Positions 24,291-63,667 of a stretch of DNA of 64,000 nt are shown piece after piece. Position 1 is the stretch's first letter; each line of letters begins with the position of its first letter. Location: NCBI RefSeq assembly GCF_000149955.1, contig NC_030991.1:4396438-4460437 (forward strand). Direction: 5' to 3'. The DNA is from Fusarium oxysporum f. sp. lycopersici 4287 (taxonomy: Eukaryota; Ascomycota; Sordariomycetes; Hypocreales; Nectriaceae). Under the pieces are notes generated by a model. That model saw only the letters and a program-made list of their open reading frames with translations. It did no database searches and was not told where the DNA came from. The position numbers and the translations under genes were made by a program.

Positions 24291-24755
24291 ACATTCTTGG
24301 TACGAAGATGCTGGTCTACGGGGGAAATGCTGACGATCTACCGAGGAAAGAGCGGGTCAACGAGCAATTCAAGGCTTAGTTCGTGTTTACGTTACAATCG
24401 AGGGTAGTTCCGCTCTAGCTTGAACTTTATACCGCCCAATTGACTTTCATGATTGAAATGATTCTGTAATCTATCTAAACCAGACTTTACAGCTCACAGC
24501 TTGAGCATGACGGGTATAGCCACCACGACACGTTAATGAGGCGGTGGCAGTGCTGAAGTCACGTGAATTCGACAAGTCCTTTGTCGCAGCCTGATTCCAG
24601 CCTCCATGCCCTCGCCATCTTTTCCTCGTGCATCTCCAGTCTTCCACGAAACGACCGTCTTACTGAGCGTCAAGACAACATCCCTTTTTCCCCTGTCACA
24701 CAAAAAGGTCCCCTGCGCTGACCGTGGCGTGTAGCGTGAGAGCAATCTTGTCAGC
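24291..24755 (+). promoter_or_regulatory. Probable promoter and 5' leader of the NLR gene
   Basis: About 465 non-coding bases precede the receptor gene, with a pyrimidine-rich stretch at 24600-24700 (CCCTCGCCATCTTTTCCTC), as is common near fungal start sites. No specific operator can be named. Confidence 0.35.
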
Positions 24756-27700: not shown

Positions 27701-28362
27701 TTGTGGGGAACGGCAATTTCGAGGTAGTGAAGATGCTTCTTGAGAAGGGAGCAGATGCTAGGGTTGCAACTAAGGATGGACGGACACCACTGCTTCTATC
27801 ATTACGGAACGGTCACTTGGAGATAACGAAGATGCTTCTTGAAAAGGAAGTGGATGCTGGAGTTACAGATAAGGATGGATTAACACCACTGCATCTAGCA
27901 TCGCAAAATGGTCACTTGGAGATAGTAAAGATGCTTTTCGAGCAGGAAGCGGATGCTAGGGTTGCAACTGAGTATGGATTGACACCACTGCATGTAGCAT
28001 CGCAGAACGGTCACTCGGAGATAGCGAATATGCTTCTCGATAAGGGAGCAGATGCTACGGCTGCAGCTCTGGATGGACGGACGCCACTGCATCTAGCATC
28101 GCAGAACGGTCACTTTGAGATGGCGAAGATGCTTCTCGAGAAGGAAGCAGATGCTACGGCTGCAGCTCAGGATGGATTGACACCACTGCATCTAGCATCG
28201 CAGAACGGTCACTTGGAGATAGTAAAGATGCTTTTCGAGCAGGAAGCGGATGCTAGGGTTGCAACTGAGTATGGATTGACACCACTGCTTTTAGCATTAC
28301 GAAACGGTCACTCGGAGATAGCGAAGGTTTTAGGGTTTGGATTAGGGTTAGAAAAGGGTTAA
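24756..28362 (+). pseudogene. NOD-like receptor: PNP_UDP - NACHT - ankyrin, frameshifted
   Basis: Exon 1 (24756-25785) encodes a PNP_UDP nucleoside-phosphorylase-like domain (YTIAWICALYIETAAAQAML, IVGIGGGAPGKLDIRLGDI). A 59 nt intron (25786-25844) joins it to a NACHT NTPase with Walker A GKPGAGKS near residue 409 and Walker B CFVDALDECD, then a winged-helix-like part ending HESVHDFLIKDKGL. Near 27105 the frame shifts (position class 2 to 1), and the following frame to 28362 holds about seven ankyrin repeats (TPLHLASQNGHLEI type). Such fungal NLRs act in non-self recognition and programmed cell death. The frameshift separates the sensor repeats from the NACHT part. The last ankyrin unit runs into a TTAGGG-like tract and stops, so the 3' end is also truncated. 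A sequencing error at the shift cannot be excluded. Confidence 0.85.
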
Positions 28363-46118: not shown

Positions 46119-49100
46119 ATGGCTGATTCTATCCCTTCGATGAACGTTTGCAGGAAATGCAAGCAGGAGAAGCCAGCAGATCAATTCATTTCGAAGACAA
46201 AGTCGTCACTCGCATGTGGAAGACCTACGACCGACTGTCTAGACTGTAGGAATCGACGAGCCTTAGGCGCCTCTAAGCGTACGGCAGAACAAGCTGAGTT
46301 ATCCCCAATATTTCGAGAAGGATTGCCATTGATAGACTTGCAACTGGGCACACCAATCACCACGTCAACACGAACGGACGCGCCGATTACTCCCCGACCA
46401 GGTCCGTCGGCTGCTTCTCAAGAAGGCGTACGACTCGGGACGCCGATCGAATCTCCGGTATCGCGTCTTTCTATTTACCCGAGGCCAACTCGAAGGGGAA
46501 GAAATCCCCGCCCGCCCGCACAGCTGCAGCAGCCGGCCATCGAACACCCAGAACATCGAGATTTTGAACTTCCTGACCCGGACTGGGCGCGTGATCTGTC
46601 GCATTGCCCGTTGTCTGATAAAGATAAGGACCTCCTGGAGGCGTTCTGGACGGAGCTGGAAAACGACCGGATGGAACACTGCGCCCGTTGTCAGGAGACA
46701 TGGTTTGACATGGGCTTGAAAGACGGCGTTTGCAAGCGTTGCATGGCCAAGGACAAGAACAAAAAGGAGGATGAACCTCTGTTTTTTTCAGCCGAAAATC
46801 AATTGGATTTTGGCTCAGTCCCCGCATTCCTCCCCCAGTTGACAAGAATAGAAGAGATGCTAATCGCTCGAGTTCATGTATTTGTGAACGTCATGCAGGT
46901 CCGGGGCCAGCAATACAAGTATCGTGGCCATATTGTGCATTTTCTCCGCGATGTTGGCAAAGTGTATCGCCAACTTCCTCTTCTACCCTCTGAATTAGAT
47001 GTTATCCTGCTACGCCCTCCGAATGCAAGCGAACATGCCCACCTTGACCGCCAATTCAGACGCCAGTTCCGCGTGTTGTTTATATTGCGCAGTAGTGCTG
47101 GGTGAAAGTATATTTTATGAAACTTAATTGTTCATTATTGAGATGAGAGTTCTTCTCGGGTTTATATCTCTAGATGATTTCATCTAGGACTTTGAACTTT
47201 AAATCTAGGACTTTCAGACTAACAGTCTGAATCCTGAAGATAAGGGGGATTCCCGGATTTTCCAACACCGCGTACGCCGTCGCTGTCTCCAGGCGTGGCT
47301 GGATTTCCTGCGCCGTAGCCATCCGGGCTACCGAGATATTGCTGTCTGCCAGAAGCGGATGTCAGTTCTGCCTGAAGATGACGATGTACTTGATCAGGTT
47401 GCTGCTGTGGACGTGACTGATCCTCTTTCAGCTGATTTAGGTGCCACGGAGAATGACGACGTTGAGCCGGATGAGGTTGACCAGCCTGCAGTACCAGATC
47501 TGCTACCAGAGGATACAGAGATGGAAGCACTGCATTCGCGCATTCTTGGCGAAGAGCGCGATGAACCGGTTCCTGTACGACAGCCGACACAACATCAGCT
47601 TGAAATGCCAGATATTCGGAGGACGCCGGTAAACGAGTTCAACCGATCGCAAGCACTTCTCTCCATGGCCTTTCCAACACTATTTCCTCGTGGTCAAGCC
47701 GATTTTGTTGAGCCGAGGCTACGGCCTATCAAGTATGCAGACTACATACAGCATGCCCTTCGATGGCACGATGGCAGATTTGCCCGCCATCCGACATTCC
47801 GGTTTGTGGTTTTCAACACGCTGATGCGAGCACAGGCGCGGGCCAAAAGCAGCTATTTCGTCAAGCAACACCATCAAAGGCGGGGCCCAATAACGCGGGA
47901 TGATCTACTGGAGGCTTTCCAGAACCCTGAATCGGCAGATGCCCAGCAGCTACTCAACTCGATTAACCGCCAGACAGCGCAGCTTCGCGGGACACGGCCG
48001 TATTGGTACCGCAAGCGTCGAGAGCTTGAGTCTTATGCCTACAACCTCGACAGTCCCGGAGCCTTTATTACTTTCACCCCGGCTGACTTGCATTGGAGGA
48101 GCCTCTACCAGCATCTGCCCCAGTTCCAAGACTGGCAGGAGTTGCCCGAGCAACAACGGATGGGCATGTCTAGCAAGCTTCTCCGAGATAATCCACACAT
48201 TGCAGCCTGGCACTTCTACAGGCGATTCGGTCTATTCAGGGATATCGTTCTGAAGCAGAAGTTCAACGTGACTGATTATTGGAACAGGTATGAATGGCAG
48301 GGCCGTGGAAGTAGCCATTGCCATGGCTTATTCTGGATGGACGGTGCGCCCAGTGTCGACTTGGAAAATGAGCATACGCGTAAGGAGTTCGTCCGTATCT
48401 GGGGGTCCCATGTTACGGCTTTGAATCCTGAGCCGGCTCGAGTGCAGCAGCAAGGAGAAGGCAATCCCCTGGCCGTAAATCCCTTGCGGCATCCCTTGAC
48501 CTTCCAATGGCTCTCGCAGATTCTGAACCGCTGCCAGCGTCACCATTGCAGTGAGACATACTGCCTACGGAAGAAGAAAGATTTAGGGGAGATTTCTTGC
48601 CGCTTTTTCTTCCCAAGAGATACGAGAGATACGGCCGACGTTGTTCGGCGACAAGGACAGTCCTACTTCTCCTTTGAGGCGACCAGGAACGACAGCCTGA
48701 TGAACCACTACAACCGGTGCCTCAGTCTTGGCTGGTTAGCCAACATTGACATATCCCCCTGTACCAGTCTCCAGGCTGTGATCAATTATGCAGCCAAGTA
48801 TTGCAGTAAGATGGAGAAGCGGACTGACAGCTATGCCAGCCTGGGGCGACAAATCTTGCCTTACGTCTCACACCATAACCCGCTTCTCTCTTTTGCTTCG
48901 CGTCTAATGAACAAGTTGCTTGCGGAGAGGGATTTCTCGGGGCAAGAGATCTGCCACGTCTTGCTCAACTGCGAGCTGCAGGAGGGCACTCGTGTTGTCA
49001 GAGCTGTTGATTGCCGTCCGTACGAGCAGCAGGGACGGTCTCTTCGCCTCCAGGGTGATCATGATGACGCCGAGGTTGTTGGGATATATGATAAGTATCT

Positions 49101-51090
49101 TTCTCGCCCACCCCTCCACGAAGAACTCACCTATCTTGACTTTCTAGCCAACTGGAATACAAGTAAGAGGGACGGGACAAAGTGGACACGTTGGGGTCGT
49201 CAAGCCAAGCCTCGTGTTCTATACTACTTCCCGCGGTACAGCTCTAACCGTCAACATGACCAATACGATGATTTTTGCCGCGTCAAGCTGATGCTGGCCC
49301 ATCCACATCGCGATCCCAACCAACTACGCAAGGTCAACGGTGTCGAGTACGCATCTTACGCACTTGCCGCCGAATTCTGTTACGGGAACCACCAGCACCC
49401 TGATGATTACTACGGCACACCCAACACCGAGGAACGTCGACCAGATCCGGATCAGTTCGAGCGGGAATTTCACGAACCTGACCTTGTGGAGGAGGACTGG
49501 CTTGAGCTTGCCCGTCAGCTTCCCAACTGCCCACCAAGCCAAGAGGCAATAGATCTTCTTGGCAGACGGGATATCGACATCCAATACGATTGGACACCCC
49601 ACGTCGGCCGCTACGCCGACCCAGGAATCGTTCAGGGCGATTATTGGCGCCAGCGGATCGAGCAGGATCGTCTCGATATGGATGTTGAGGACCTGCCTTT
49701 AGAGGTCCGCGATACGCTCAACCCGGAGCAGCGGATAGTATACGATACGTTTGTTGGACACTTTCAGTGTGGCAGCGAGGAGCAGATTCTACTCCACGTT
49801 GACGGCGGCGGCGGGACAGGCAAGTCCTACATGATCAAAGTCCTGTCTTCGCATCTTCAGAGGCTCGCTGGTGACCGGCCCAGTCCGATCTGGAGAGCTG
49901 CACCCACGGGTGTTGCAAGCAACCAGATCATGGGGACAACTCTACACTCCCTTCTCCGGCTACCCGTTGATAGAGCTTTTACAGAGCTATCGCCAGCAGA
50001 TGCTAATGCTATCCAGAAGAAGCTACGGGACGTTCGGTATCTCGTGATTGACGAGAAGAGTATACTGGGTCTGCGCCAGCTTTCGTGGGTTGACAAACGC
50101 CTCCGCCAAGTCTTTCCCGGCAGAGCAGCCGACTTCTTTGGCGGCATGAGCATCATCCTCGTTGGCGACTTCTTCCAGCTCCCGCCGGTTGCAAACAAGC
50201 CCCTCTACTTTGATGGGCCGCTCAAGGACCTGCACGAGGTCTCTGGCCAGGCGGCATATAGGGCCTTCAACCACACTGTCTTCTTGAAGAAGGTCGAGCG
50301 GCAGCAGGGCGACGACCAGGCTGGCTTTCGTCTCGCGCTTGAAGAACTGCGCGGTCTGAGGTTATCCATCGAATCATGGAAACTTCTGAGCCAGCGTGTG
50401 CAGGCCAAGCTAAGCCAGTGCGAGGTGGACAAGTTCGATACTACTCTCCGGATCTATAGCAAGAAAGCTCGTGTCAATGAGTACAACTACGACCACCTAG
50501 TCCGTCTGAAGAAGCCAGCAATCCAAGTCATGGCCAAGAACATTGGCAACGGTGCTGACAAGGCAACATCTGAACAGGCTGGCAACCTGGCTGGCCAGTT
50601 TCCGGTATGTATCGGTGCTCGCCTCATGATCACCCAGAACATCTGGCAGCCAGCAGGCCTGGTTAATGGGGCCCAGGGGATAGTGTATGACATCGGCTGG
50701 GCACCTGGCGCTGATACACATCGTGACCCGCCGTGTGTCATTATGATGGTGATAGACAAGTATACGGGGCCATCTTATCTAACCACTGATGATAGGCGCG
50801 AGGTAGTACCCATACTCCCCGTGAAGCGAGACTTCTTTCTTGGGACGTCCGCGTGTACACGGAAGCAGTTCCCACTTACAGTATAATACGCCATTACGGT
50901 TCACAAGTCACAGAGCATCACGGTGGACAAGATGGTGACGGATCTGTCGGAACGGGACTTTCAGACGGGGCTTAGCTACGTTGCAGTGTCGAGGGTCAAG
51001 ATGCTAGAGGGGTTAATGATCGATGCCCCATTTGAACGCGCATCTCTCCACTATGACAAGCTACCTGATGGCAAGAATAGTACCACGTGA
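46119..51090 (+). pseudogene. Helitron RepHel, broken by an LTR insertion and a nonsense codon
   Basis: The frame starts MADSIPSMNVCRKCKQ, matching the first copy's ATG at 2551. It is stopped after residue 328 by a 194 bp solo LTR plus a 5 bp duplication (199 bases, frame +1). The frame resumes until a TAA at 50884, where the first copy has TCA (context PLTV*YAITVHKSQS), and then runs to a TGA at 51088. The HUH motif SSHCHGLFW, YAAKY and Walker A GGGGTGKS are all kept. The substitutions relative to copy 1 look mostly synonymous or mild, so it was under selection until recently. The TCA-to-TAA change is not a RIP-type change. Confidence 0.93.
47074..47267. repeat. Solo LTR (194 bp) inside the Helitron gene
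   Basis: Starts TGTTGTTTATATTGCGC and ends GGATTTTCCAACA, with a 5 bp target duplication CCGCG at 47069-47073 and 47268-47272. The intact Helitron copy has a single CCGCG at this place. It is the product of LTR-LTR recombination that removed the internal part. It is not the same family as the LTR at 1491-1626. Confidence 0.9.
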
Positions 51091-51524: not shown

Positions 51525-52955
51525 ATGCCAGAAGACACGACCAAGCTAGCAAGCTATAAGCGTATCATCCTCTGCTCAGACGGCACATGGCTTGCGTCCG
51601 ATACGGGCGGAAAGGCCATGCCTTCCAATGTCGCTAAGTTGGCTCGAGCAGTTGCGAACAGTGGCCCTGATGATGAAGGGAACCTCGTCAAGCAGATCGT
51701 ATCCTACCATTCGAACCTTGGAAGCGGGGACCTCCCCTTCCAGAAAGCTATCTACGGTGAGCTGCTGAAATCCAAATCTCCCTCTTCGCTTTCCCTCTGA
51801 CAGCTTTACTGACATTTTTGCTACTGCATTTCACAGGCGGCTTCGGCTGGGGTCTTGACATCGATGTGGCTCAAATCTACGATTTCATTTCCAATAACTA
51901 CGAGCCTGGCGATGAGTTGTTCTTCTTCGGCTTCTCGCGTGGGGCTTTCACTGTGCGATCGGTCGCCGGCCTTGTCTGCGATGTCGGCGTCCTTTCAGCT
52001 GTGCACATGTCGCGCTTCGCAGAGATGTGGAGCGTGTACCGTTCGAATACGAGTGGTGAGCCCTTCAGGAAGTCAGCGTGGTATCTGGACAATAAGGAAG
52101 AGCTGGGTCTTACGGACGTCAGGGTTAAGGTGGTTGGTGTTTGGGATACCGTTGGAGCTCTGGTACGCGACGCAAGTTATCATGCATGCTTCTCCCGTTT
52201 GACTGACCTTGCATGGCTAGGGAATCCCGGAATGGCCCGTGGTAGATTGGGCGGCAAAAGTTGGCCTCCCAATCAACAAGCAGTATGCATTCCACAATAC
52301 GAACGTATCAAAGAGTGAGTATTATCGCACGTGTTCCTCACAGAACGGCCGGGCCTAAATGACGACTCCTTCAGATCTAGACTATGCTTTCCAAGCCCTC
52401 GCCATTGACGAAAAACGACTAACCTTCTCTCCTACCCTGTGGCACAAGACTGCTGACGGTCCTGCGAAAGATCTGCAGCAATGCTGGTTTCCCGGCGTCC
52501 ACGGCAACATCGGCGGCTGGGGCTGTGGGCCGATCGTCGATAACTTCTCAGGGCTGCAAGGCCTCTTCTTCTGGCTTCTCGGGAAGAAAGACCGCGCACC
52601 GGGCACTTATCCGCGGGACCCAGGCGATGGCACTAGTGGCGCCACGAACGAGTATTTCCATCCTATCACTCGAATCCGCAAGGACAACCTCAACTACAAC
52701 CCGGTGTCGTTGCAGGGATATGCCATCGAGAGACCTGATGGCAGCGAGGGGTGGAAGTGGGTGAAGAGGGGCGTCCAGTCGATACCCGAGTACGTGATGC
52801 GCCCGGAAAAGAAGATGAGTGTAGCGTACGAGGAGAGTGGGAGGGTGAAGTATCGAGTCAAGGAAAGTTTATCGAGATTACTGTGTCCAGAGAGCATTCT
52901 GTTGGATCTAGATAGGGACAATGGGATAAACGGGATGAGCAGGGTCGTGGGCTGA
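51525..52955 (+). CDS. DUF2235 (Tle1-like) alpha/beta hydrolase
   Basis: Four exons: 51525-51756, 51837-52162, 52221-52314 and 52375-52955. The introns are 80, 58 and 60 nt, all GT-AG, and the joined length is 1233 nt (410 aa), an exact multiple of three. The N-terminal LCSDGTW, the elbow GFSRGAFTVRSVAG with Ser111, VGVWDTVGALGIPEWP and the late WFPGVHGNIGGW motif are hallmarks of DUF2235, a family related to type VI phospholipase effectors. The second intron is placed to restore GALGIPEWPVVDW; the obvious alternative acceptors break the frame. In fungi such hydrolases are often unassigned and occur near NLR genes. It is likely cytosolic, as no signal peptide is seen. Confidence 0.85.
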
Positions 52956-54039
52956 GTGACCATGGGAAAATAGCATCTCGAGTGAACGAAGAATCCAACC
53001 GTAGCAGAGAGCCAGAGTATCCGTGGCCAACAAAGCCCCGAAGGCTGCGGTTTATCCAATTAGAGCCCATTATAATGTTACAACCCTTCGTTTTGTAAGG
53101 CTTTTCCTGTAGTGCGGAATATTATCCGGCGAACAGGAATGCAGTCAGGGTAAATGAATCGATTATGGCTCCCTTTTTTCCGCTAGCATTAAGAGTGTGC
53201 ATCGATCCATTGAATTCCGCGCCCCAGCTGTATCGTATTCACGATAATTCTGATGCTCATATGATGACCAGAGAGGTTCTACATGTGTTACCACACACTG
53301 TCCGACGCCTTTTCACATGCTTAATCAAGCTCTAGAGTGCCAACCCGGCTTCGAGTGCTCTTAGGGTGGGCGACAAGCCCATATACGACGGTGGTAAGAC
53401 CTCTGCATGTAAAACAAATTCCATTGGCAGAACTTACTAAACCGAAAATCGAGAAGCAGAGTAGCATGCGCACTTTCTAATGATTTTGTGGTTGCGGCAG
53501 ATGGTAGCGGTTACTGACATGAGAAGCAAGGCTGATATTCTTGGTGCGATAATTCAATAGCATAGCGGCTGATTGAAAATAAAAACCCCACCTTGGGATT
53601 GTTTTCACAAAAATGCTCTTTAGAAAGTGCGGTAAAATGGTGATGATTATGTCAGGCAGGCGGCTATCGGGATCCGCTATTTTCACATGCCCCGGATAAC
53701 GGATGGCTATCAGGAAACCTAAAAGAGATCACATGCTGCAGGCCAGACGAAGAAAGTTTAAAGCAGCTTCGAGTGAGCAAATAATATAATCATTCCCTGA
53801 CTAGCGTTCCCGCATCCGGATAGGAGCAACTGGGAAAGCCGCAAGATATGGTTCCTTCACAGGAGGCAGCAAGATTAGGCGGAAAAGGCAGGGGTGGGTA
53901 CTCACTTGAGGCGGTAAATCGGCATCTTTACCTTCCAGAATTGCAGTTCAAGGCATTTCCCACTCATGAGCGATCCCCATCGGCTCCCTAATTGCAGCAT
54001 TATCACAAATACCCGGTGACTCCTCTGCTCTAGCATATC
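52956..54039. other. Intergenic, no gene recognised
   Basis: About 1.1 kb with only short ORFs on both strands. The last part before 54040 should hold the promoter of the HeLo gene. Confidence 0.4.
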
Positions 54040-54906
54040 ATGGCTGAGATATTCGGCGTCGTTGCCAGCGCGCTGAGCGTTGCGGTACTCTTCAATAACG
54101 TGGTTGACTGCTTTGAATACATCCAGCTGGGACGGAATTTTGGGGAGGACTACCAGACTTGCCAGGTTAAACTCGACATTGCTCGACTGCGTCTTTCTCG
54201 TTGGGGAGATGCTGCCAAGATTAACAATGACAGCAGATTTACGGAAGTCAAACCTAGCAACAATCAGGTCCGCGTAGCGAAGAACACATTGGAGCAACTC
54301 CTAAACCTGTTCCGCAATGCACATACGGAGTCGTCCAACTTCAAATTAGGCGAGGGAGAAGAGGAGTTGGCTCTATTCGATCCAAGCACGAATACCAACC
54401 AGGCCGTCGTGGCACTGCGAAACACGATGCGTGATCTTGCGCACAAGCGGCAGAAGACCACGAGTCTATCGAAGAAGATATCCTGGGCACTCTATAAGCA
54501 AAAGTCCTTCATGCGGTTGATTGAGGATATTCAGGAACTTCTTGACGGCTTGGAGGCCATATTTCCGCAACAGGAAACCTACAAGCGGATGGTGGAGATC
54601 GAAATTGAAGAAGTTGGAGAAGGGCCAAGCCTACAGGTGTTGTCAGACGCGGCGCAAGAGACAGATGACCTTCTTCAAGAGGCAGCAAGTAGGAGACTAG
54701 AAGCACTAGGCAGCAGCAACGCGATAGACCAAGCGAAGGTGGCCGAAACCGCAAAGGTAAAGGTGGGGAACGAATATATCTTTCAAGCAGTTCCCAGCAG
54801 GACTGGCATCACGACGAACAGGATTGGGGATTTAGATGCGCAGGGAAGGTCGAGAGTGCTTGTCGGGGATAGTCATGGAACCAAGGGATTTATGGACAGC
54901 GACTAG
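54040..54906 (+). CDS. HeLo-domain cell-death effector with C-terminal amyloid-like motif (HET-s type)
   Basis: A 288-aa single-exon protein. Residues 1-225 match the HeLo domain: a hydrophobic N-terminal helix (AEIFGVVASALSVAVLFNN), then FEYIQLGRNFGEDYQTCQVK, ARLRLSRWGDAAKIN and the KKISWALY block. Residues 239-286 hold two pseudo-repeats, with KVKVGNEY near 240-246 and RVLVGDSHG near 272-280. They resemble the two beta-solenoid turns of HET-s-related amyloid motifs. Known family members stay soluble until their amyloid part is templated by a partner NLR or prion; the HeLo domain then attacks the plasma membrane. No break is seen. The gene lies 560 bases upstream of, and on the same strand as, a NACHT gene, the classical arrangement. 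Fold assignment is by recognition; activity is inferred. Confidence 0.88.
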   Translation: MAEIFGVVASALSVAVLFNNVVDCFEYIQLGRNFGEDYQTCQVKLDIARLRLSRWGDAAKINNDSRFTEVKPSNNQVRVAKNTLEQLLNLFRNAHTESSNFKLGEGEEELALFDPSTNTNQAVVALRNTMRDLAHKRQKTTSLSKKISWALYKQKSFMRLIEDIQELLDGLEAIFPQQETYKRMVEIEIEEVGEGPSLQVLSDAAQETDDLLQEAASRRLEALGSSNAIDQAKVAETAKVKVGNEYIFQAVPSRTGITTNRIGDLDAQGRSRVLVGDSHGTKGFMDSD

Positions 54907-55467
54907 GGCATGCTCAGAGAAATCCCCTCCAAGCTAGAACGATGTCATATCCTGAGGTTAGCAGCGCTGGGAACTATGTTCCTGCACATAGGCACGCCAT
55001 TTATTGATAAATACTACCACCTCGCCTCGAGGGAGTCCTGCTATTCCACAGCCTGATCTCGTGATTCGTACCTTCTCCCGCCAGCAAGCCCGTTGGTTTC
55101 ATTTCTGGGCGAGCGACAAACCCCAAGCCGGCTGCGCGACCCTGGAACCACTGGCGCTATGCCCTTATCTGGAAAGCGCCCAGGTCGCAGATGTCAATCC
55201 CTAAAAATAACCTAGCTGCTTCTTAAACTCCGCGGCGGCTTAGTGGCTTGTGCAGACGACTGTTTTGAGCATTGATTGGCTCCAATCTACAGAGGCAGGG
55301 TCAAAAAAAGGACAGCTAATCTGTACGTACCAGTGCCCAAAATCTTCCTAATATGAGTCACTTCCCTAGTCGAGGATGGCAGTGCGGTCAACATTATCCA
55401 ATTTGACTGGGTACAGCTGATCTCGGAGGACTTTCGTGTTCGGTGCCAAACCCTCGATGTGCTCGAA
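54907..55467 (+). promoter_or_regulatory. Spacer between the HeLo gene and the NACHT gene
   Basis: About 560 bases without a supported gene, large enough for a terminator and a separate promoter. No specific signal can be named. Confidence 0.35.
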
Positions 55468-56616
55468 ATGGCAACGAATGACGAACGAGGAAAGGGGACT
55501 ATCAATTCCCTGAGGAATGCGACAATTTCTGGCAATGGCAGACTCGAGGTGGGAGATAACTACACGACAAACAATTACATGACGAACAACTACGCGAACC
55601 ACAGCGACCTAAACCTTGACCAGTGCCTTATCGACCTACAAGTAACCGATCCCCGCCATGACAAGAGACGCATTGAGGAGACAAAGGGTGGGCTTATCAA
55701 GGACTCGTACAAGTGGATTCTGCATCATCAGGACTTTCGGAGATGGCGAGACGACAGAGACAGCCGGCTGCTCTGGATCAAGGGCGATCCTGGCAAGGGC
55801 AAAACCATGTTGCTCTGCGGCATTGTCAAGGAGCTAGAGAAGCAAGGCAAGAAGCCTCTGGCTCACTTCTTTTGCCAGGCCGCCGACTCGCGCATTAACA
55901 ATGCAACGGCCGTGCTGCGCGGTCTCATTTACCTCCTTCTTGACCAGCAACCGTCCCTCATCTCGCACGTAAAGAAAAGGTACAAAAATGCCGGTAAAAG
56001 ACTCTTTGAGGATGTGAATGCATGGGTGGCTTTGTCTGAAATCTTTGAAGACATCTTTGCAGAAACCTTGCGAGACAGCACCTTGCTGATCATCGACGCG
56101 CTCGACGAATGCCTGACAGGTTGTCAGCAACTTCTCGACTGGATTGTCAAGATATCATCTGAATTTCCTCGTGTCAAATGGATTGTCTCGAGTCGCAACT
56201 GGCCAGACATCGAGGAGAAACTGGATAATACGAAGCAGAAAGTCAGGCTTCACCTCGAATTAAATCAGGCTTCAATCTCCGCCGCCGTACGCATTTTCAT
56301 TCGGCACAGGGTTGAAGCACTGGCAAAAGAAAAGAAATATGATCGCCAGACACGGGATGTCGTTGAACAACACTTGGTCTCTCATGCCAATGACACGTTT
56401 CTCTGGGTAGCTCTGGTCTGTCAAGAGCTCGCAGATCCCAAGGTCCGAAAACGACATATGCGCGACAAGTTGAAGTCATATCCCCAAAAGAAGAGGAAGG
56501 GCAAATTAATACAAGAAGTCAAGCCAAACGAATACTTTACTCAGACCTCAGGAGCATCAACCTTTAGCCCGCAGCAGTCGCCAAGCAACAATTGCAATCG
56601 TACGAAAGCCTTTTAA
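55468..56616 (+). CDS. NACHT receptor, short form, with candidate amyloid N-terminus
   Basis: A 382-aa frame from the ATG at 55468 (the frame opens at a GTG at 55459). Residues 11-32 include TINSLRNATISGNGRLEVGD, which shares the G-x-x-R-(L/V)-x-V-G-D pattern with the C-terminus of the HeLo protein. The NACHT part follows: Walker A GDPGKGKT at 106-113, Walker B LLIIDALDE at 206-214 and the SSRNWPDIEEKL sensor region. After HDTFLWVAL-type residues the match ends at about 345, and the C-terminal 38 residues (QKKRKGKLIQEVKPNEYFTQ...) are unrelated. No ankyrin, WD or TPR repeats are attached, so the gene is probably truncated or has lost its sensor; a gap and an ankyrin relic lie downstream. It would oligomerise on ligand binding and template the HeLo protein. 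Confidence 0.78.
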   Translation: MATNDERGKGTINSLRNATISGNGRLEVGDNYTTNNYMTNNYANHSDLNLDQCLIDLQVTDPRHDKRRIEETKGGLIKDSYKWILHHQDFRRWRDDRDSRLLWIKGDPGKGKTMLLCGIVKELEKQGKKPLAHFFCQAADSRINNATAVLRGLIYLLLDQQPSLISHVKKRYKNAGKRLFEDVNAWVALSEIFEDIFAETLRDSTLLIIDALDECLTGCQQLLDWIVKISSEFPRVKWIVSSRNWPDIEEKLDNTKQKVRLHLELNQASISAAVRIFIRHRVEALAKEKKYDRQTRDVVEQHLVSHANDTFLWVALVCQELADPKVRKRHMRDKLKSYPQKKRKGKLIQEVKPNEYFTQTSGASTFSPQQSPSNNCNRTKAF

Positions 56617-57559
56617 GTTGGTAGAGCCGTTGCTAATCTATAGTAGATTCCCTTGACTCGACCCAGACTGCCGCTTATTACCCCAGTGGAACCACTGCAG
56701 ACATGTACAATGCCGGGACGCAGATGCATCCTCCGCAAGAAATGGACCCACGACTACGGTGATGCACGAATTGTGGACGGGACAGGAGTAACGCTTCCCA
56801 GCATCAACATAACCAGATAGTGTCTGAACTATCTAAGTCAAGGGTGCAAGAACTCCGAGCCATCGTCTCGGCTAGCTGAACGAAGCACTACGCAGCGTTC
56901 CATTGATATGTCCATTATTCTTTTCAGAACAAACTTATTAGCCGCATTAGCTATAATCCAAATTAAGATCCACTATCAAACAGCCTACTCAAGAATTATC
57001 ACCAGAGACGCATTGCGTTTCTGGTTTTTGACCAATCACCGTCTAGCATTTTCGCCCTATATTTCCCCTATAGAAACGCACTGCGTTTCTACTGTAACAA
57101 GGGCTCGTTGTAATGTGCCGAATTACACAGAATCTGGCCCGTGCACGCATCGAGCTTCTTCTAAATATGGGCAAGATCATCATGACACTCCACTTATTCT
57201 TCATTCTGATCGCAATTTCTGTTGAACAGGTGCTGGGGCCTCACGTGCAAGCAGGGATACTTTAAGATTACAGCCGAAATGGTAAAACCTCTAAGGGGTA
57301 GAATACAACACAACATGAATATACCAATCTGGGTCAATGGACCGAATACACGTAATGTCTGACAATTTCCCCAACCGTGCACGTTAGCAAGATCTCCCCT
57401 ACGGGCCTTCATTGCGGTAGAGCGCCACTAACGCCAGAATCGATACCCTTCTTCAAATCATATGCTTACAGGCTTAGGCGAGTGGCCATGCTCGAATGAC
57501 GCTGAATTGTTGAGCGCGAGAGTTGGCTCCAAGCAATTGGGGATGTAGAATGGTAAAAT
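56617..57559. other. Non-coding region up to the gap
   Basis: No supported gene. Two related hairpin motifs occur: AGACGCATTGCGTTTCT near 57004 and the perfect palindrome TAGAAACGCACTGCGTTTCTA near 57070. Part of the missing receptor 3' end may once have been here. Confidence 0.4.
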
Positions 57560-58198
57560 NNNNNNNNNNNNNNNNNNNNNNNNNNNNNNNNNNNNNNNNN
57601 NNNNNNNNNNNNNNNNNNNNNNNNNNNNNNNNNNNNNNNNNNNNNNNNNNNNNNNNNNNNNNNNNNNNNNNNNNNNNNNNNNNNNNNNNNNNNNNNNNNN
57701 NNNNNNNNNNNNNNNNNNNNNNNNNNNNNNNNNNNNNNNNNNNNNNNNNNNNNNNNNNNNNNNNNNNNNNNNNNNNNNNNNNNNNNNNNNNNNNNNNNNN
57801 NNNNNNNNNNNNNNNNNNNNNNNNNNNNNNNNNNNNNNNNNNNNNNNNNNNNNNNNNNNNNNNNNNNNNNNNNNNNNNNNNNNNNNNNNNNNNNNNNNNN
57901 NNNNNNNNNNNNNNNNNNNNNNNNNNNNNNNNNNNNNNNNNNNNNNNNNNNNNNNNNNNNNNNNNNNNNNNNNNNNNNNNNNNNNNNNNNNNNNNNNNNN
58001 NNNNNNNNNNNNNNNNNNNNNNNNNNNNNNNNNNNNNNNNNNNNNNNNNNNNNNNNNNNNNNNNNNNNNNNNNNNNNNNNNNNNNNNNNNNNNNNNNNNN
58101 NNNNNNNNNNNNNNNNNNNNNNNNNNNNNNNNNNNNNNNNNNNNNNNNNNNNNNNNNNNNNNNNNNNNNNNNNNNNNNNNNNNNNNNNNNNNNNNNNN
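57560..58198. other. Assembly gap (639 N)
   Basis: A run of N. The size may be an estimate. Any open frame drawn across it has no meaning. Confidence 0.99.
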
Positions 58199-58473
58199 CC
58201 TGTGTGGCACCTGTTGAGCTGAGTTGATCGAATGGTTTGTATCGGTTGCCTAGCCTATATACTAAAGTGTTCTAGCGAATTAGAAGACCAAATGATCATC
58301 TCGGTGTTGATTGAGTTATATTTCTTAGGACCATATACAATCAAAAAAAAAAAAAAAAAAGTGACCCCGAAATCATGAAAACATCCGTTCAGCATAACGA
58401 CTCACTTCGTTGCGCAGGGGAGCCAAAGATGCGAAACAGACACAAACTGCCCCAGAATTTACGTAGATCGCAG

Positions 58474-58652
58474 CGTTACACCTTGTGGGGCGCGGCGAGA
58501 GGACATGAGTCTATCGTTAAGCTGCTTCTAGACATAGGTGAAGTCGATGTTAATGCCCAAGACGCGGATGGCCAGGCGGGCGAAATCGTCAAAAGGATCA
58601 TGAGCACGAGCAAAAGTTCTCTCCAGAGCAGGAAAAGAGCCCCCCGAGGATA
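58474..58652 (+). pseudogene. Ankyrin-repeat relic
   Basis: One ankyrin unit is legible: YTLWGAARGHESIVKLLLDI followed by GEVDVNAQDADGQ. The frame then changes character and stops at 58651. It may be what remains of the sensor end of the NACHT gene to the left, with the rest in the gap, or a piece of another NLR. Confidence 0.55.
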
Positions 58653-59761
58653 GCAGCCAAGTCGGAGAAATATCACAGTATAGATGAATTGACTACGTCA
58701 CACTAAGCGGCATAGTGGATACTGGGCGATCAGATTGGCCTCACTGATGAGGCTTTCAGCGCTCCAAATTCCTGTTGTCTTGCAGTTCGAACTAGAATAA
58801 TTCATAGTGACGCAATTATTCGGGGCTGACGTGGATGTGTCTGAATCCCGTTGTGAGAAGGCGCCATGGCTTAAGACCTAGAACGTCGGTCCCTATTTTT
58901 AGGGTTTTCAATACCGAGCTACATCGATGCTACAGCCCTATCAAGTATTGAAGGGGTGTGCTGCCAAGCCATCGGGCTGTCAACAGCAGGGTCGAGCCGC
59001 AGAAAGGTTGAGCCTCAACAGGCTATTTCAGGAAGAGCCTGGCCTGGTTGAAACTGCCACGTCTATCGAGAATCTGGGCTAACTAGTATGACTGAAGCCC
59101 CTTCTCAATGTCCTCCTCGCTCTCTGATAGGTTAGGACACAGCCGCACAGGTCTTATGTAGTCGGATCATGGAGCCTCCGGGCCTAGTTGTCATATTGTT
59201 GCTAGAGGTATAAGTGAGATTCCGATGATTAAAATACTCTAGGTGCATTTATCTATCAATTCATAAGTGTATATAACGGCCATCAGATCCGAACAAGTCC
59301 CAATTCTCACTAGGATCGCTATTATCAATCACTTGCTTAACAAAACATATCAAGTCAACCACATCTATCTTCAACCTGATCTAAAGTGCAATCTAAATAA
59401 TTGCTTGACGCGGAGCATTCGCCATTTGGTGGAGCATCCCACCCACCCATCCATCCATTCTTATATCGCTAGGTGCTGGCACGAGGCTTCACAGCTGCGT
59501 GGCTGAGTTGTGGCTGAGGCCGAGGTACGTGGACTGGTGGCTCTCTGGCTTTGCGGCGGTGACCGCCACCTGAGCGTCTCGCTAACCCTCTGGATGTCGT
59601 TCAAAGTTAAACTTTCCTCGAGCCTTATCACCTGCATTTTTGCGAAATTTAGACATCAAATTACAGACTTATATAAGTAGTCAAGTATGCGTCCAAACTT
59701 TACTACCCTAGATTATACCTCACTATAATAAGTCAAAATAGTACATTCGTCTCTCAACAAT
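58653..59761. other. Intergenic, no gene recognised
   Basis: Short ORFs only. The AT-rich last 130 bases (59630-59760) are the likely promoter of the tandem-repeat membrane-protein gene. Confidence 0.4.
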
Positions 59762-60742
59762 ATGACTTCGCAAATTGTTCGAGATGCCGTCAACGATGGT
59801 ACCCAGGCTGGAATCAGCAGCGCCCGAGACAATATTCAAGGGACCCTCCAAAATGCCGTCAACGATGGTACCCAGGCTGGAATCAGCAGCGCCCGAGACA
59901 ATATTCAAGGGACCCTCCAAAATGCCGTCAACGATGGTACCCAGGCTGGAATCAGCAGCGCCCGAGACAATATTCAAGGGACCCTCCAAAATGCCGTCAA
60001 CGATGGTACCCAGGCTGGAATCAGCAGCGCCCGAGACAATATTCAAGGGACTCTCCAAGATGCCGTCAAGGATGGCATCCAGGCTGGAATCAGCGGTGCC
60101 CGAGAGACTATTCAATGGACTCTCCAAGCTGCCGTCAAGGATGGCATCCAAGCTGGAATCAGCAACGCCCAAGAGACTATTCAAAACACTGTTCGCGATG
60201 CCTTCGTGGATGGTACTCGTAATGCTGATGATACTGCGCCAACCTTAAAGTGGTTTGAAGAATTTCTTCTGCATATAATTAAGGTATCCATTTTCGGGGG
60301 ATCAATTACCTTCACAGTCATCGTCATACCGATCCAGGATCCCGCTCAGCTGCATGGGAACAATATAGCATTCCGGAAGGAAACTGTTCTCAAATTTCTC
60401 ACAACGGCCTGGCTTCTCTTTTGCAGTGGACTGAGCATTGCAAGCGTCACCAAGCTTATTGTGACGTTTGCTCGTGGGAAGATCAACAAAGCCTTTAATA
60501 AGGAAATGGGGATTTCGAAGTTGGCCGTCTTATTTCATTTGCTTTCCCTCCTTCTTTGTGCTGTTTTGTTAGGGGCTTTTACTTTTCTCTCACTTGGTGT
60601 AGTTGCTTACGTGGGGACTGTGGGCTGGATAGCTTGTACCGTCACCTTAGTGACTGCGGTTATTGGTCTATGCTGTTGGGTTTCTGAGGCTATGCGGATG
60701 TATCCAAGGGTGTGCTCAACTCAACGTATTTCAATATGTTGA
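59762..60742 (+). CDS. Membrane protein with 23-residue tandem repeats, 3' end replaced by a hAT
   Basis: The frame encodes 326 aa. Residues 9-146 are six copies of a 23-residue unit (AVNDGTQAGISSARDNIQGT plus LQN), probably amphipathic helix, ending in AFVDGTRNADD. Then follow about four hydrophobic helices (SIFGGSITFTVIVIPI; FLTTAWLLFCSGLSIASVT; LAVLFHLLSLLLCAVLLGAF; TVGWIACTVTLVTAVIGLCC). The last 13 residues come from the hAT terminus. Before the insertion the frame continued after Tyr at 60701-60703 into HKWQGQGSQLSPTYQNQL and a stop at 63729-63731. All predicted helices are kept, so the present protein may still work. The family is not recognised. Confidence 0.7.
   Translation: MTSQIVRDAVNDGTQAGISSARDNIQGTLQNAVNDGTQAGISSARDNIQGTLQNAVNDGTQAGISSARDNIQGTLQNAVNDGTQAGISSARDNIQGTLQDAVKDGIQAGISGARETIQWTLQAAVKDGIQAGISNAQETIQNTVRDAFVDGTRNADDTAPTLKWFEEFLLHIIKVSIFGGSITFTVIVIPIQDPAQLHGNNIAFRKETVLKFLTTAWLLFCSGLSIASVTKLIVTFARGKINKAFNKEMGISKLAVLFHLLSLLLCAVLLGAFTFLSLGVVAYVGTVGWIACTVTLVTAVIGLCCWVSEAMRMYPRVCSTQRISIC
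59786..60199 (+). repeat. 69 bp coding tandem repeat, six units
   Basis: The 69-base unit begins GCCGTCAACGATGGTACCCA. The first four units are identical or nearly so over their whole length, and the last two are diverged (GTCAAGGATGGCATCC). Every unit is a whole number of codons, so copy-number change keeps the frame. Confidence 0.95.
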
Positions 60743-63667
60743 ATGGATTGACGATCAACGTCAACTCAACGTCAATCAATATCGAATACGGATTACATAA
60801 ACATCAATCCATTTTGAGTTATCATTGATTGAATGGATTGAAGGTGGTGGATTTAGGGTAGCTGGTAATAGGACTCGTGATTCCTGAAGAGATTTTGGTA
60901 TCTTGAATAGGTTTAGTCTGTGCGATCCACCCTTCCCGTTATACTAACTTTAATATGGTTTAGCTCATCACTTGGGGTTTTTTCCCTCTTGGATCAGTGC
61001 CCACGCGCTCCATGTTCGCGTTCTTCCGCGACCGTGATCCAGCTGGACGCTCTGAACCAGAAGGAATGGAGTCTACATCGCCCTCCACGAACGACGTTGA
61101 CCTGTTATCTTCCGCAACACTTGCAGTGGCTTCTTTAGCGACGCCAGCTCCCAGCCTGCAAGAGGAAAGACCACATGAAGAAGTAGAACATCAGTACCTC
61201 TGGCGTTGCTTCCCGGATTACGTTTGGTCCCAACGCGTCCGAGATACGCCATCGTGGGTATGGGGCTTCGGGTATGATGTTGAGGATTCTTCTGGTGCCC
61301 GGCGGTGGGTCTGCAGGCGCTGCATCCAGAATAAGAATCCTAAACCCAGAAGCTTCGCGGAGAAGGGAATCCAGAATGCGAACGCCCATTTATTCAAGGG
61401 CCATGGAATACGCGCTCCCCCTGATAAGACGAAATCAGCCGCTGAGAAAAAAGCCGAGAAATTAAAGGCCAAGGATCAGAGGTCCATCGCCGAAGTGATG
61501 AAGCTCGATACGCGACTCCCGCGCGAACAAGATATTGCGAACAGTCTGGCCAAGGGTTTCGACCGCAAGCATTTCCAGCGCCTCCTACTCGAATGGATTA
61601 TCGAGGAAAACCACGCATTTAGCGTCTGTGAGCAAGGAAGACTACGCCAGATATTCGAATACCTCAACCCACTTGTCAAGATCACGGATGCCAATATTAC
61701 CAGGACAACCATCCGCCGCAAAGTTCTCTCGGCCTACGAAATGCACAAGGATAAGGTCGTCGCAGCGCTGAAGCAGTCATGCGGCCTGATTCACGTCTCC
61801 TTTGACGGATGGAAGTCAGGCAACAGGCACAGCTTGTACGGGATTGCTTGTTTCTTTCGGGATGAGAATAGCCAGCCACGCAAGCTGGCGCTTGGTGTAC
61901 CGGAATTGAGAACTCGCCATTTCGGACACAACATTGCGGCCGAAATACTGGACGTCCTTGACGCCTATAGTATCCAGGATAAGATTGGGTACTTCACACT
62001 GGACAACGCGGAAAGCAACGACAAGGCCATGGAGGTAATTGGTGGTGAGCTCGGGTTCGTCGGGTCGAGGAGGCGTGGGCGCTGCTTCGGCCATACGCTA
62101 AATCTCTCGGCCAAAGCACTGCTGTTTGGCCACAACGTCGAGGCTTTCGAAGAGCAGTTGTCAGGGGAAGCTGCTCTGTCTGAGGCGGAGCACACACTTT
62201 GGCGGCGCAAAGGACCTGTCGGAAAGCTGCACAACCTGGTGGTTGACGTCCGAAGGTCGGACCAGCTTACTTATTTGCTGCGGAGTATACAACGCTCCGA
62301 ATTCGATCTATCTTCGGACCCCAGGATTAGAGCGAGGCAGCCGGTCGATTTGATCATTGACAACGATACCCGGTGGCTTTCTCAACTATACATGATTAGA
62401 CGCGCCATCATTCTTCGACCATTCATCGAACAACTCGTCTTGAAGCATCGTCAACAGTGGGAGCAGGACAACAGATCAAAGAGGACAGGGAATCTCAGAA
62501 AGTCTGCAAGGGAGCCCCGGATTTGCTTGGAGGAAAACCAGCTTACGGTCAATGACTGGGTAGTCCTGGAACACCTGGCTAAGCTTCTTGGATTCTACGA
62601 GGACGCCGTGAAGACTCTGGAAGGCGATGGCCAACAACGCAAGCGGAAAGGAGGGTGGGTTGGCTCGTACGGGAATGTATGGGAGGTTATCCAGGGATTC
62701 GAGTTCTTGTTGGAAGTACTCGAGGACTATAAGCAGCTTGCTTCTGAGATACCCGACGCGGAGCACTTCCGAATCAATATTAATCTGGGTTGGGAAAAAC
62801 TCAACAAGTACTACAGCAGGCTGGATGAGACACCAATCTATTACACGGCCTTAGCGCTGCACCCGGCTTTCCGGTGGGGGTATTTCGAGAATGAGTGGAA
62901 GGATAACACGAAATGGGTGATGAAGGCGAAGCAGATGGTCCGAGAAGTGTGGGAATCGGACTATCGTCACCTGCAGGTGGTCCGGAGTCCCGTGGACGAC
63001 GAACCAGTTGCGAAGCGGCAGCGAAAGTACTACAACCCATTTCAAGCGTACTGTGAGCGCACGCGGCCGGTTCTCGGATACGGTTTGGTGAAAGAGGAAG
63101 CGACTTTGTCTGACGACATCAATGAAGATATTAACGAGCTCGAATTATGGCAGTCGTCATGGGAGGATGGAGATAACGATGTTAGAGATCCAATATCATA
63201 CTGGCATGAGCGCAAACGTCGGTATCCTCGTCTTTCACGAATGGCGCTGGACTTCCTTACGATCCAGCCGATGTCAGCAGAGTGTGAGAGGATGTTTGCG
63301 GCGGCAGGGCGGATGGTGACGCCACTACGAAATCGGCTGGACGCGGACATTATAGGAATGTGTCAAGTGCTGCGATCGTGGTTACGGGCTGGGGTGATTG
63401 ACGACCTGGACTTGTCACTACTTCCTACTGAGAATGGTAGTGGTGATGGGACGGAAGAAGGATCCTGGGTAGAGGTGGGATGTGAAGAAAAGGGGATGGG
63501 AGAGTGGGAGTGAACTAGCTCGGCTTGGAGATCAACGACTTCAACCAGTGTCCATTCAACTCAATTTGACGGATAATTGATCAACGCCACTAGAGAGAGT
63601 GGTTGACCAGGTCAACTCACCGCCACCGAGCCATTCAGTTGATTGAATTGAGTGGTGCACACCCTTG
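60705..63667 (+). mobile_element. hAT DNA transposon 3, intact
   Basis: A 2963 bp element with a perfect 8 bp target duplication, GATGTATC, at 60697-60704 and 63668-63675. The ends share CAAGGGTGTGC (and complement), and both subterminal regions are rich in TTGAATGGATTGA / TCAACTCAA motifs. It carries one uninterrupted transposase. The perfect duplication and open gene suggest a recent insertion. Confidence 0.95.
61012..63513 (+). CDS. hAT transposase
   Basis: An 833-aa single-exon protein; the frame opens at a GTG at 60997, and the first ATG is at 61012 (MFAFFRDRDPAGRSEP). An N-terminal BED-like finger has RRWVCRRCIQNKN and HLFKGHG. The core shows HVSFDGWKSGNRHSLYGIAC and GYFTLDNAESNDKAM (candidate catalytic Asp sites), CFGHTLNLSAKALL, and DNDTRWLSQLYMI. 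The C-terminus carries the hAT dimerisation segment YPRLSRMALDFLTIQPMSAE followed by CERMFAAAGRMV. It differs clearly from the transposase at 12721-14888, so it is another hAT lineage. The tail is acidic (Glu/Gly-rich). No lesion is seen. Confidence 0.94.
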   Translation: MFAFFRDRDPAGRSEPEGMESTSPSTNDVDLLSSATLAVASLATPAPSLQEERPHEEVEHQYLWRCFPDYVWSQRVRDTPSWVWGFGYDVEDSSGARRWVCRRCIQNKNPKPRSFAEKGIQNANAHLFKGHGIRAPPDKTKSAAEKKAEKLKAKDQRSIAEVMKLDTRLPREQDIANSLAKGFDRKHFQRLLLEWIIEENHAFSVCEQGRLRQIFEYLNPLVKITDANITRTTIRRKVLSAYEMHKDKVVAALKQSCGLIHVSFDGWKSGNRHSLYGIACFFRDENSQPRKLALGVPELRTRHFGHNIAAEILDVLDAYSIQDKIGYFTLDNAESNDKAMEVIGGELGFVGSRRRGRCFGHTLNLSAKALLFGHNVEAFEEQLSGEAALSEAEHTLWRRKGPVGKLHNLVVDVRRSDQLTYLLRSIQRSEFDLSSDPRIRARQPVDLIIDNDTRWLSQLYMIRRAIILRPFIEQLVLKHRQQWEQDNRSKRTGNLRKSAREPRICLEENQLTVNDWVVLEHLAKLLGFYEDAVKTLEGDGQQRKRKGGWVGSYGNVWEVIQGFEFLLEVLEDYKQLASEIPDAEHFRININLGWEKLNKYYSRLDETPIYYTALALHPAFRWGYFENEWKDNTKWVMKAKQMVREVWESDYRHLQVVRSPVDDEPVAKRQRKYYNPFQAYCERTRPVLGYGLVKEEATLSDDINEDINELELWQSSWEDGDNDVRDPISYWHERKRRYPRLSRMALDFLTIQPMSAECERMFAAAGRMVTPLRNRLDADIIGMCQVLRSWLRAGVIDDLDLSLLPTENGSGDGTEEGSWVEVGCEEKGMGEWE

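What the first reader, a model, noticed from the sequence alone, without database searches (positions are those of the whole stretch)
54040..56616. HeLo effector and NACHT receptor pair that may signal by amyloid templating
A complete HET-s-type HeLo protein with two C-terminal amyloid-like pseudo-repeats sits next to, and in line with, a NACHT gene. The receptor's first 32 residues share the G-x-x-R-(L/V)-x-V-G-D pattern with the effector's second pseudo-repeat. In known systems this shared motif passes the fold from receptor to effector. The receptor has lost its sensor repeats, so the pair may be decaying or the receptor may work in a new way.
Basis: partly seen in the sequence, partly recalled or inferred. 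Interest (0 to 1): 0.85.

Follow-up and report, generated by a model that had tools for sequence, protein, structure and literature searches.

The report
HET-s-type signalling pair with truncated receptor
A fungus carries, on a duplicated chromosome segment, a gene for a cell-death protein of the well-known HET-s prion family next to its partner immune receptor, but the receptor has lost its sensing half, so this looks like a broken copy of a known kind of system.

Summary
The window's contig matches in length one of Fusarium oxysporum f. sp. lycopersici 4287. The effector (54040-54906) is a full-length HET-s homologue: HeLo domain (PF14479, 178 bits) plus a HET-s prion-forming region (PF11558, just over its cut-off) with two 21-residue repeats that AlphaFold2 models as two stacked rungs. 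The receptor (55468-56616) has one such motif at residues 11-31; by a repeat profile it is the best of 59,081 six-frame 21-mers in the window after the effector's own two repeats. Pfam's receptor profile does not match it, but reached its cut-off in 0 of 4 other receptors with such motifs. Four orthologues, 90-96% identical up to residue 339, continue into WD40 repeats; here homology stops at base 56484. An identical copy on C3 has the same break, and the fetched flanks do not hold the lost half. So this is a NWD2/HET-S-type pair (HRAM1) with a truncated receptor: a known family and a known kind of decay (nwd2 is a pseudogene in Podospora het-s strains). The same genome keeps a fuller pair on C12. 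Whether the sensorless receptor is dead or seeds without ligand is open; I favour dead.

The parts
54040..54906 (+). effector gene, 288 aa, no intron needed
   Evidence: open frame; HeLo and HET-s_218-289
54055..54642 (+). HeLo domain, residues 6-201
   Evidence: PF14479 178.3 bits; model matches 2wvn, 2wvo, 2wvq, TM 0.95 by target length
54712..54774 (+). amyloid repeat r1, residues 225-245
   Evidence: strands in models
54811..54873 (+). amyloid repeat r2, residues 258-278
   Evidence: strands in models
54907..55467 (.). 561 bp between the two genes, same direction
   Evidence: coordinates
55468..56616 (+). truncated receptor gene, 382 aa
   Evidence: open frame; identical on C3
55498..55560 (+). 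receptor motif r0, residues 11-31
   Evidence: profile 20.5 bits; nearly the same in orthologues P0241-P0244
55705..56292 (+). NACHT region (NPHP3_N residues 80-243, NACHT 100-275); Walker A at residue 106, Walker B at 206, sensor-1 SSR at 241
56484..56484 (+). last base homologous to related receptors
   Evidence: 96 of 120 strong alignments end here, the rest between 56421 and 56583; orthologues
56485..56616 (+). non-homologous tail of the receptor frame
56730..57023 (.). dispersed piece, 98% identical to C6:1447660-1447953
57089..57559 (.). nested dispersed repeats (one, 57217-57367, inside another)
57560..58198 (.). assembly gap (639 N); 100 N at the same place on C3

Best explanation
A NWD2/HET-S-type amyloid-signalling pair of the HRAM1 class in F. 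oxysporum. In its intact form (another F. oxysporum strain, F. solani) a NACHT-WD40 receptor would sense a ligand, oligomerise, fold its N-terminal 21-residue motif into one rung of a beta-solenoid and so template the two-rung prion-forming region of the HeLo effector, which then attacks membranes and kills the cell. In this genome the receptor was cut after the nucleotide-binding part, before the WD40 repeats, and the segment exists twice (C3 and C6). The effector is intact and probably still convertible; the receptor is most likely a non-functional remnant. Shown here: homology, motif, predicted fold, truncation, duplication, fuller orthologues. Inferred from the Podospora system: templating, membrane attack, cell death. 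Inferred: that the truncated receptor is dead rather than active.
For: Effector: PF14479 178.3 bits, PF11558 over cut-off, HET-s structures. Two rungs in the model of residues 217-288, best PDB matches HET-s and HELLF amyloids. Receptor motif 20.5 bits, 1 of 20,000 shuffles. Orthologues P0241-P0244, 89.9-95.8% identical over the part of residues 1-339 that aligns, with WD40. Homology ends at 56484 in 96 of 120 strong alignments; no later piece of P0241, P0242 or P0244 in the window or C3:18000-36407 at E 1e-3. P0001 (effector, 96%) and P0244 (receptor) list the same longest contig, 6,774,195 bases.
Against: The frame 1-339 is fully open with intact Walker and sensor motifs, so long decay is not seen. 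Pfam does not recognise the receptor motif. It starts at residue 11, while most HRAM motifs in receptors start at 5-9 (PMC9815663 passage). No expression data, no seeding data.
Confidence: 0.72

Rival explanations
1. The truncated receptor is active: without the WD40 domain it assembles without a ligand and seeds the effector, giving a constitutive or prion-like state.
For: NWD2 pieces without WD repeats (motif plus NACHT, 1-543 in the text, 1-534 in the legend) induced the HET-s prion in yeast without ligand (PMC4344463 passages). The window receptor keeps r0, Walker A, Walker B and sensor motifs in an open frame.
Against: It is shorter (homologous only to residue 339) and ends before the region that matches a winged-helix profile in P0121 (22.7 bits, under the cut-off of 27). 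A constant seeder beside a working effector should kill its carrier, unless the effector is inactive or expression is low (inference).
Confidence: 0.12
2. The effector is kept for another trigger: the complete receptor on C12, or contact with a prion form, as HET-S reacts to [Het-s]. Compatible with a dead neighbour receptor.
For: Complete-looking pair on C12 with an HRAM1 motif. HET-S homologues of Podospora and F. graminearum with 37% identity in this region cross-seed (PMC7885112 passage). Podospora incompatibility needs no NWD2 (PMC5485727).
Against: Window and C12 prion-forming regions are only 30% identical (20/67). No functional data.
Confidence: 0.15
3. The receptor is whole in life and the break is an assembly error or a very long intron.
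For: There is a gap 1.07 kb beyond the break, at the same place in both copies.
Against: The sequence between break and gap is unrelated DNA and repeats; no sensor piece beyond the gap in the window, nor in C3:18000-31387; the gap is written as 639 and 100 N. In the whole genome the best match to the lost half (taken from P0121) is 77% and belongs to another receptor.
Confidence: 0.05
4. The receptor N-terminus is not an amyloid motif; the likeness is chance or common ancestry of a linker.
For: No Pfam match; only 10.2 bits with the r2-only profile, with one unrelated 21-mer of the window higher.
Against: 1 of 20,000 shuffles with the joint profile. Of 228 related receptors 17 score 20 or more, one 19.8 and the next 11.8; at 20.5 this one lies in the upper group.
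Confidence: 0.03

Closest known systems
NWD2/HET-S of Podospora anserina (and its het-s haplotype)
   Same: HeLo effector with two 21-residue repeats next to a NACHT receptor with one repeat at its N-terminus. In het-s strains nwd2 is a pseudogene scarred by a repa element (PMC3321046, PMC4344463), so a broken receptor beside an intact effector is known.
   Different: Here both genes point the same way (divergent in Podospora). The receptor is cut short, not interrupted by a small insertion. The effector has N at position 33 (H in HET-S, P in HET-s).
Fuller orthologous pair, F. oxysporum P0001 + P0244
   Same: Effector 96% identical; receptor 95.8% over 309 aligned residues, nearly the same r0.
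   Different: Receptor 753 aa with WD40 repeats. That they are neighbours is inferred from the same longest-contig length, not from coordinates.
Second pair of the same genome, C12:1782-1788 kb
   Same: HET-s homologue (PF11558 76.2 bits) and NACHT receptor with r0 (PF17108 44.8 bits).
   Different: Divergent genes; the receptor goes on in a further 744-aa frame; effector 34% identical to the window's.

Membership tests
HET-s family effector (HeLo + HRAM1) | N-terminal HeLo domain | tested here: met
   PF14479 178.3 bits; TM 0.95 to HET-s HeLo structures
HET-s family effector (HeLo + HRAM1) | two C-terminal 21-residue repeats with linker of 6-18 residues | tested here: met
   PF11558 34.1 and 37.7 bits, cut-off 32.2; linker 12
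HET-s family effector (HeLo + HRAM1) | key positions N3, hydrophobic 5/8/10/16/18, R or K15, G19 (PMC4518210) | tested here: met
   read from the repeats; positions 8 (r1) and 10 (r2) are the small residue A
HET-s family effector (HeLo + HRAM1) | two-rung beta-solenoid | tested here: inconclusive
HET-s family effector (HeLo + HRAM1) | amyloid formation and induced cell death | not testable with these tools
   needs experiments
NWD2/HET-S-type pair | receptor gene next to the effector gene | tested here: met
   561 bp apart, same strand
NWD2/HET-S-type pair | single motif of the same class at the receptor N-terminus | tested here: met
   20.5 bits, 1 of 20,000 shuffles; PF17108 and PF11558 do not match, but PF17108 reached its cut-off in 0 of 4 comparable receptors
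NWD2/HET-S-type pair | NACHT domain with nucleotide-binding motifs | tested here: met
   PF05729 58.2 bits; motifs
NWD2/HET-S-type pair | C-terminal WD40 or other repeat sensor | tested here: not met
   homology ends at 56484. So the receptor is filed as a truncated relative, not as a working NWD2
NWD2/HET-S-type pair | templating of the effector by the receptor | not testable with these tools
   needs experiments

The most novel reading that the evidence does not exclude
The sensorless receptor is a natural, ligand-independent amyloid seeder kept next to its effector on a duplicated segment. The locus would then hold a self-propagating HET-s-like state that makes carriers react with strains carrying an intact pair: a compatibility barrier or drive system built from a truncated immune receptor.
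Probability: 0.07. Interest if true: 0.75.

Novelty: new member of a known kind. Interest (0 to 1): 0.36.

Why it matters
It is a well-resolved natural case of a receptor cut down to motif plus NACHT, close to the artificial arrangement that seeded without a ligand in yeast (PMC4344463 passages). It also puts two HET-s lineages in one genome (window and C12), so cross-talk between pairs becomes testable. As a system it is known; the gain for a specialist is modest.

Tried and rejected
Pfam on the receptor N-terminus: no PF17108 or PF11558 match; read as low sensitivity, in which PF17108 reached its cut-off in 0 of 4 receptors that score 21 or more with my profile (P0124 below cut-off at 21.4 bits; P0131, P0137, P0205 no match). 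P0121 and P0123 were in that call too, also without a match, and are left out of the count: P0121's model lacks r0, and P0123's motif is one residue short for my scan.

Special fit of r0 to this effector clade: scores are higher for the own clade (p 3e-6, sequences not independent), but the C12 motif behaves alike (45.3 against 38.6), so I claim no cognate specificity.

HeLo activity from residues 23, 33 and 86 (here D, N, Q): among 122 aligned sequences D23 is in 72, N33 in 27 (H33 in 83, P33 in 1), Q86 in 34; all 20 nearest relatives have D23 and N33, so I infer no loss of activity. The N-terminal stretch is the most hydrophobic of 120 compared (2.07; mean of the other 119 is 1.66): compatible with membrane insertion, no proof.

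Upstream start of the receptor: the frame before 55468 has no ATG. Search for the lost half in the genome: best 77%, in another receptor. Inverted or direct repeats in 56400-58800: none found. The sigma-70-type promoter scan says nothing in a fungus. Papers: six searches listed none on this locus, but the gene tables of PMC3321046, PMC4518210 and PMC4344463 are in supplements that I could not open, so I do not claim that it is unreported.

Full report
WHERE IT IS. The window is G000:C6:4396438-4460437 of a 61.2-Mb assembly. C6 is 4,589,937 bases long, and protein P0332, named FOXG_06947 of Fusarium oxysporum f. sp. lycopersici 4287, has a longest contig of exactly that length; I take this as that strain. 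The locus is present twice: C3 carries it at about 31-36 kb, on the other strand, with 100% identity over 5,020 bases (window 52540-57559), and beyond the gap one difference in 4,880 (58199-63078).

EFFECTOR. The 288-aa protein at 54040-54906 matches HeLo (PF14479, 178.3 bits) and HET-s_218-289 (PF11558, 34.1 bits; 37.7 for residues 217-288 alone; cut-off 32.2). By sequence its best solved relatives are the HET-s/HET-S HeLo structures (205 bits) and the HET-s amyloid 2kj3 (E 1.8e-4; 1.2e-5 for residues 217-288 alone). An AlphaFold2 model with 94 sequences has mean pLDDT 82.1; its HeLo part matches 2wvn, 2wvo and 2wvq with TM 0.95 by target length. Of 158 proteins at E 0.001, 120 were listed; the nearest two are 96% identical and from F. 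oxysporum. In a tree of 39 HeLo sequences it lies in a group of 24 (100/100) apart from 15 others that include the C12 protein; the program flags long branches, C12 among them.

RECEPTOR MOTIF. A profile of 108 r1 and 109 r2 sequences (window and P0001-P0003 left out) gives receptor residues 11-31 20.5 bits: 1 of 20,000 shuffles reaches it, and of 59,081 six-frame 21-mers of the window only r1, r2 and this motif do. With r1 alone it is 19.5 bits (0 of 20,000), with r2 alone 10.2 (25 of 20,000, and one unrelated 21-mer at 13.0). Of 228 related receptors, 17 score 20 or more, one 19.8, the next 11.8; the orthologues P0241-P0244 score 19.8-25.8. PF17108 does not match the window receptor; on P0124, P0131, P0137 and P0205, all 21 or more by my profile, it reached its cut-off in 0 of 4. 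In the genome PF17108 is over its cut-off only at C12, and PF11558 at C12, C3 and C6. One listed pair with consecutive locus tags, Triagg1_8862 (effector P0098) and Triagg1_8863 (receptor P0208, 28.5 bits), shows the same arrangement.

TRUNCATION. Of 120 strong alignments of related receptors to the window, 96 end at 56484 and the rest between 56421 and 56583. P0241 (F. solani, 1,092 aa), P0242 and P0244 (F. oxysporum) and P0243 (Dactylonectria, partial record) are 92.6, 94.7, 95.8 and 89.9% identical over 339, 339, 309 and 318 aligned residues, carry nearly the same r0 and continue. WD40 is listed for all four; Pfam finds 11 WD40 stretches in P0241 and 4 in P0244. tblastn of P0241, P0242 and P0244 finds nothing after 56487 in the window, nor the corresponding part in C3:18000-36407, at E 1e-3. 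Behind the break lie 245 bases without another match in the genome search, a 294-bp piece 98% identical to C6:1447660, nested dispersed repeats, and the gap. Effector P0001 and receptor P0244 both have a longest contig of 6,774,195 bases: probably a pair in another strain, inferred from length only.

OTHER COPIES. C12 has a HET-s homologue (PF11558 76.2 bits) and, divergent, a receptor with r0 (PF17108 44.8 bits), NACHT and a further 744-aa frame of which part matches P0241 beyond its NACHT. The prion-forming regions of the C12 and window effectors are 30% identical (20/67).

MECHANISM. In Podospora the NWD2 N-terminus folds into a HET-s rung and templates HET-S, which then permeabilises membranes (PMC3321046, parts 2-3 of 8 and passages; PMC4344463 passages; PMC3531502 passages; PMC5485727 abstract and one section). 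Pairs in tandem as well as divergent are described. NWD2 mutants in the P-loop, Walker B or sensor lost activity. The present receptor keeps these motifs and r0 but has lost the rest. NWD2 pieces with motif and NACHT but no WD repeats seeded without ligand in yeast, so an active seeder is possible; they were longer than what is left here, and beside a working effector a constant seeder should kill. Hence I favour a dead receptor, with the effector perhaps kept for another trigger. The het-s haplotype of Podospora, with nwd2 scarred by repa, is the nearest parallel.

NOVELTY. F. oxysporum HET-s homologues were in the 2012 paper (FOX1713, FOX14669); the 2015 table lists 22 HRAM1 proteins for the species; a 2025 paper found 6 HET-s motifs in strain Fo5176 (PMC12261475, one section and passages). 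I could not check whether this gene is among them. Truncated receptors are a named category in Sordariales (PMC12258605 passages). Hence: new member of a known kind, with a truncated receptor.

Noticed in passing
L037 (C8:3548500-3557500), 3269-6501, minus strand: A HeLo domain 76% identical to the window effector stands before TPR-bearing frames of a receptor-like gene (HeLo 167 bits; TPR_12; NB-ARC itself not matched at E 0.001, the P-loop seems split by an intron). It sits inside the effector group of the tree (7 rows, 100/98), which suggests that a HeLo domain moved between amyloid effector and fused receptor. dN/dS over 224 codons is 0.27 or 0.42 by two methods.
   Followed up: partly
24735-28362: Overlapping frames of a phosphorylase-like (PNP_UDP_1 36.6 bits), a NACHT-like (NPHP3_N 116 bits) and an ankyrin part (Ank_2 254.5 bits), probably one more receptor gene with introns.
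   Followed up: partly
P0121 (Ilyonectria destructans), residues 43-82: This deposited receptor model matches the window's r0 region in a different reading frame, so its protein lacks r0: a frameshift or a wrong gene model.
   Followed up: no
59762-60742: Open frame that begins with near-identical coding tandem repeats about 69 bp apart, then hydrophobic stretches; DUF7872 26.3 bits, cut-off 26.
   Followed up: no
58492-58563: Scrap of one ankyrin repeat just beyond the gap (21.2 bits, cut-off 21.1); the orthologues of the receptor have WD40, so it is probably from another gene.
   Followed up: no
47209-50886 and 60964-63513: The locus is flanked by a Helitron-like frame (154.3 bits) and a hAT-like transposase frame (63.2 bits).
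   Followed up: no
52359-52955: Upstream neighbour matches the Tle1-like phospholipase catalytic domain (53.4 bits).
   Followed up: no
effector residue 16 (54085-54087): V in the predicted membrane helix where 101 of 121 aligned relatives have A and P0001 and P0002 do too.
   Followed up: no
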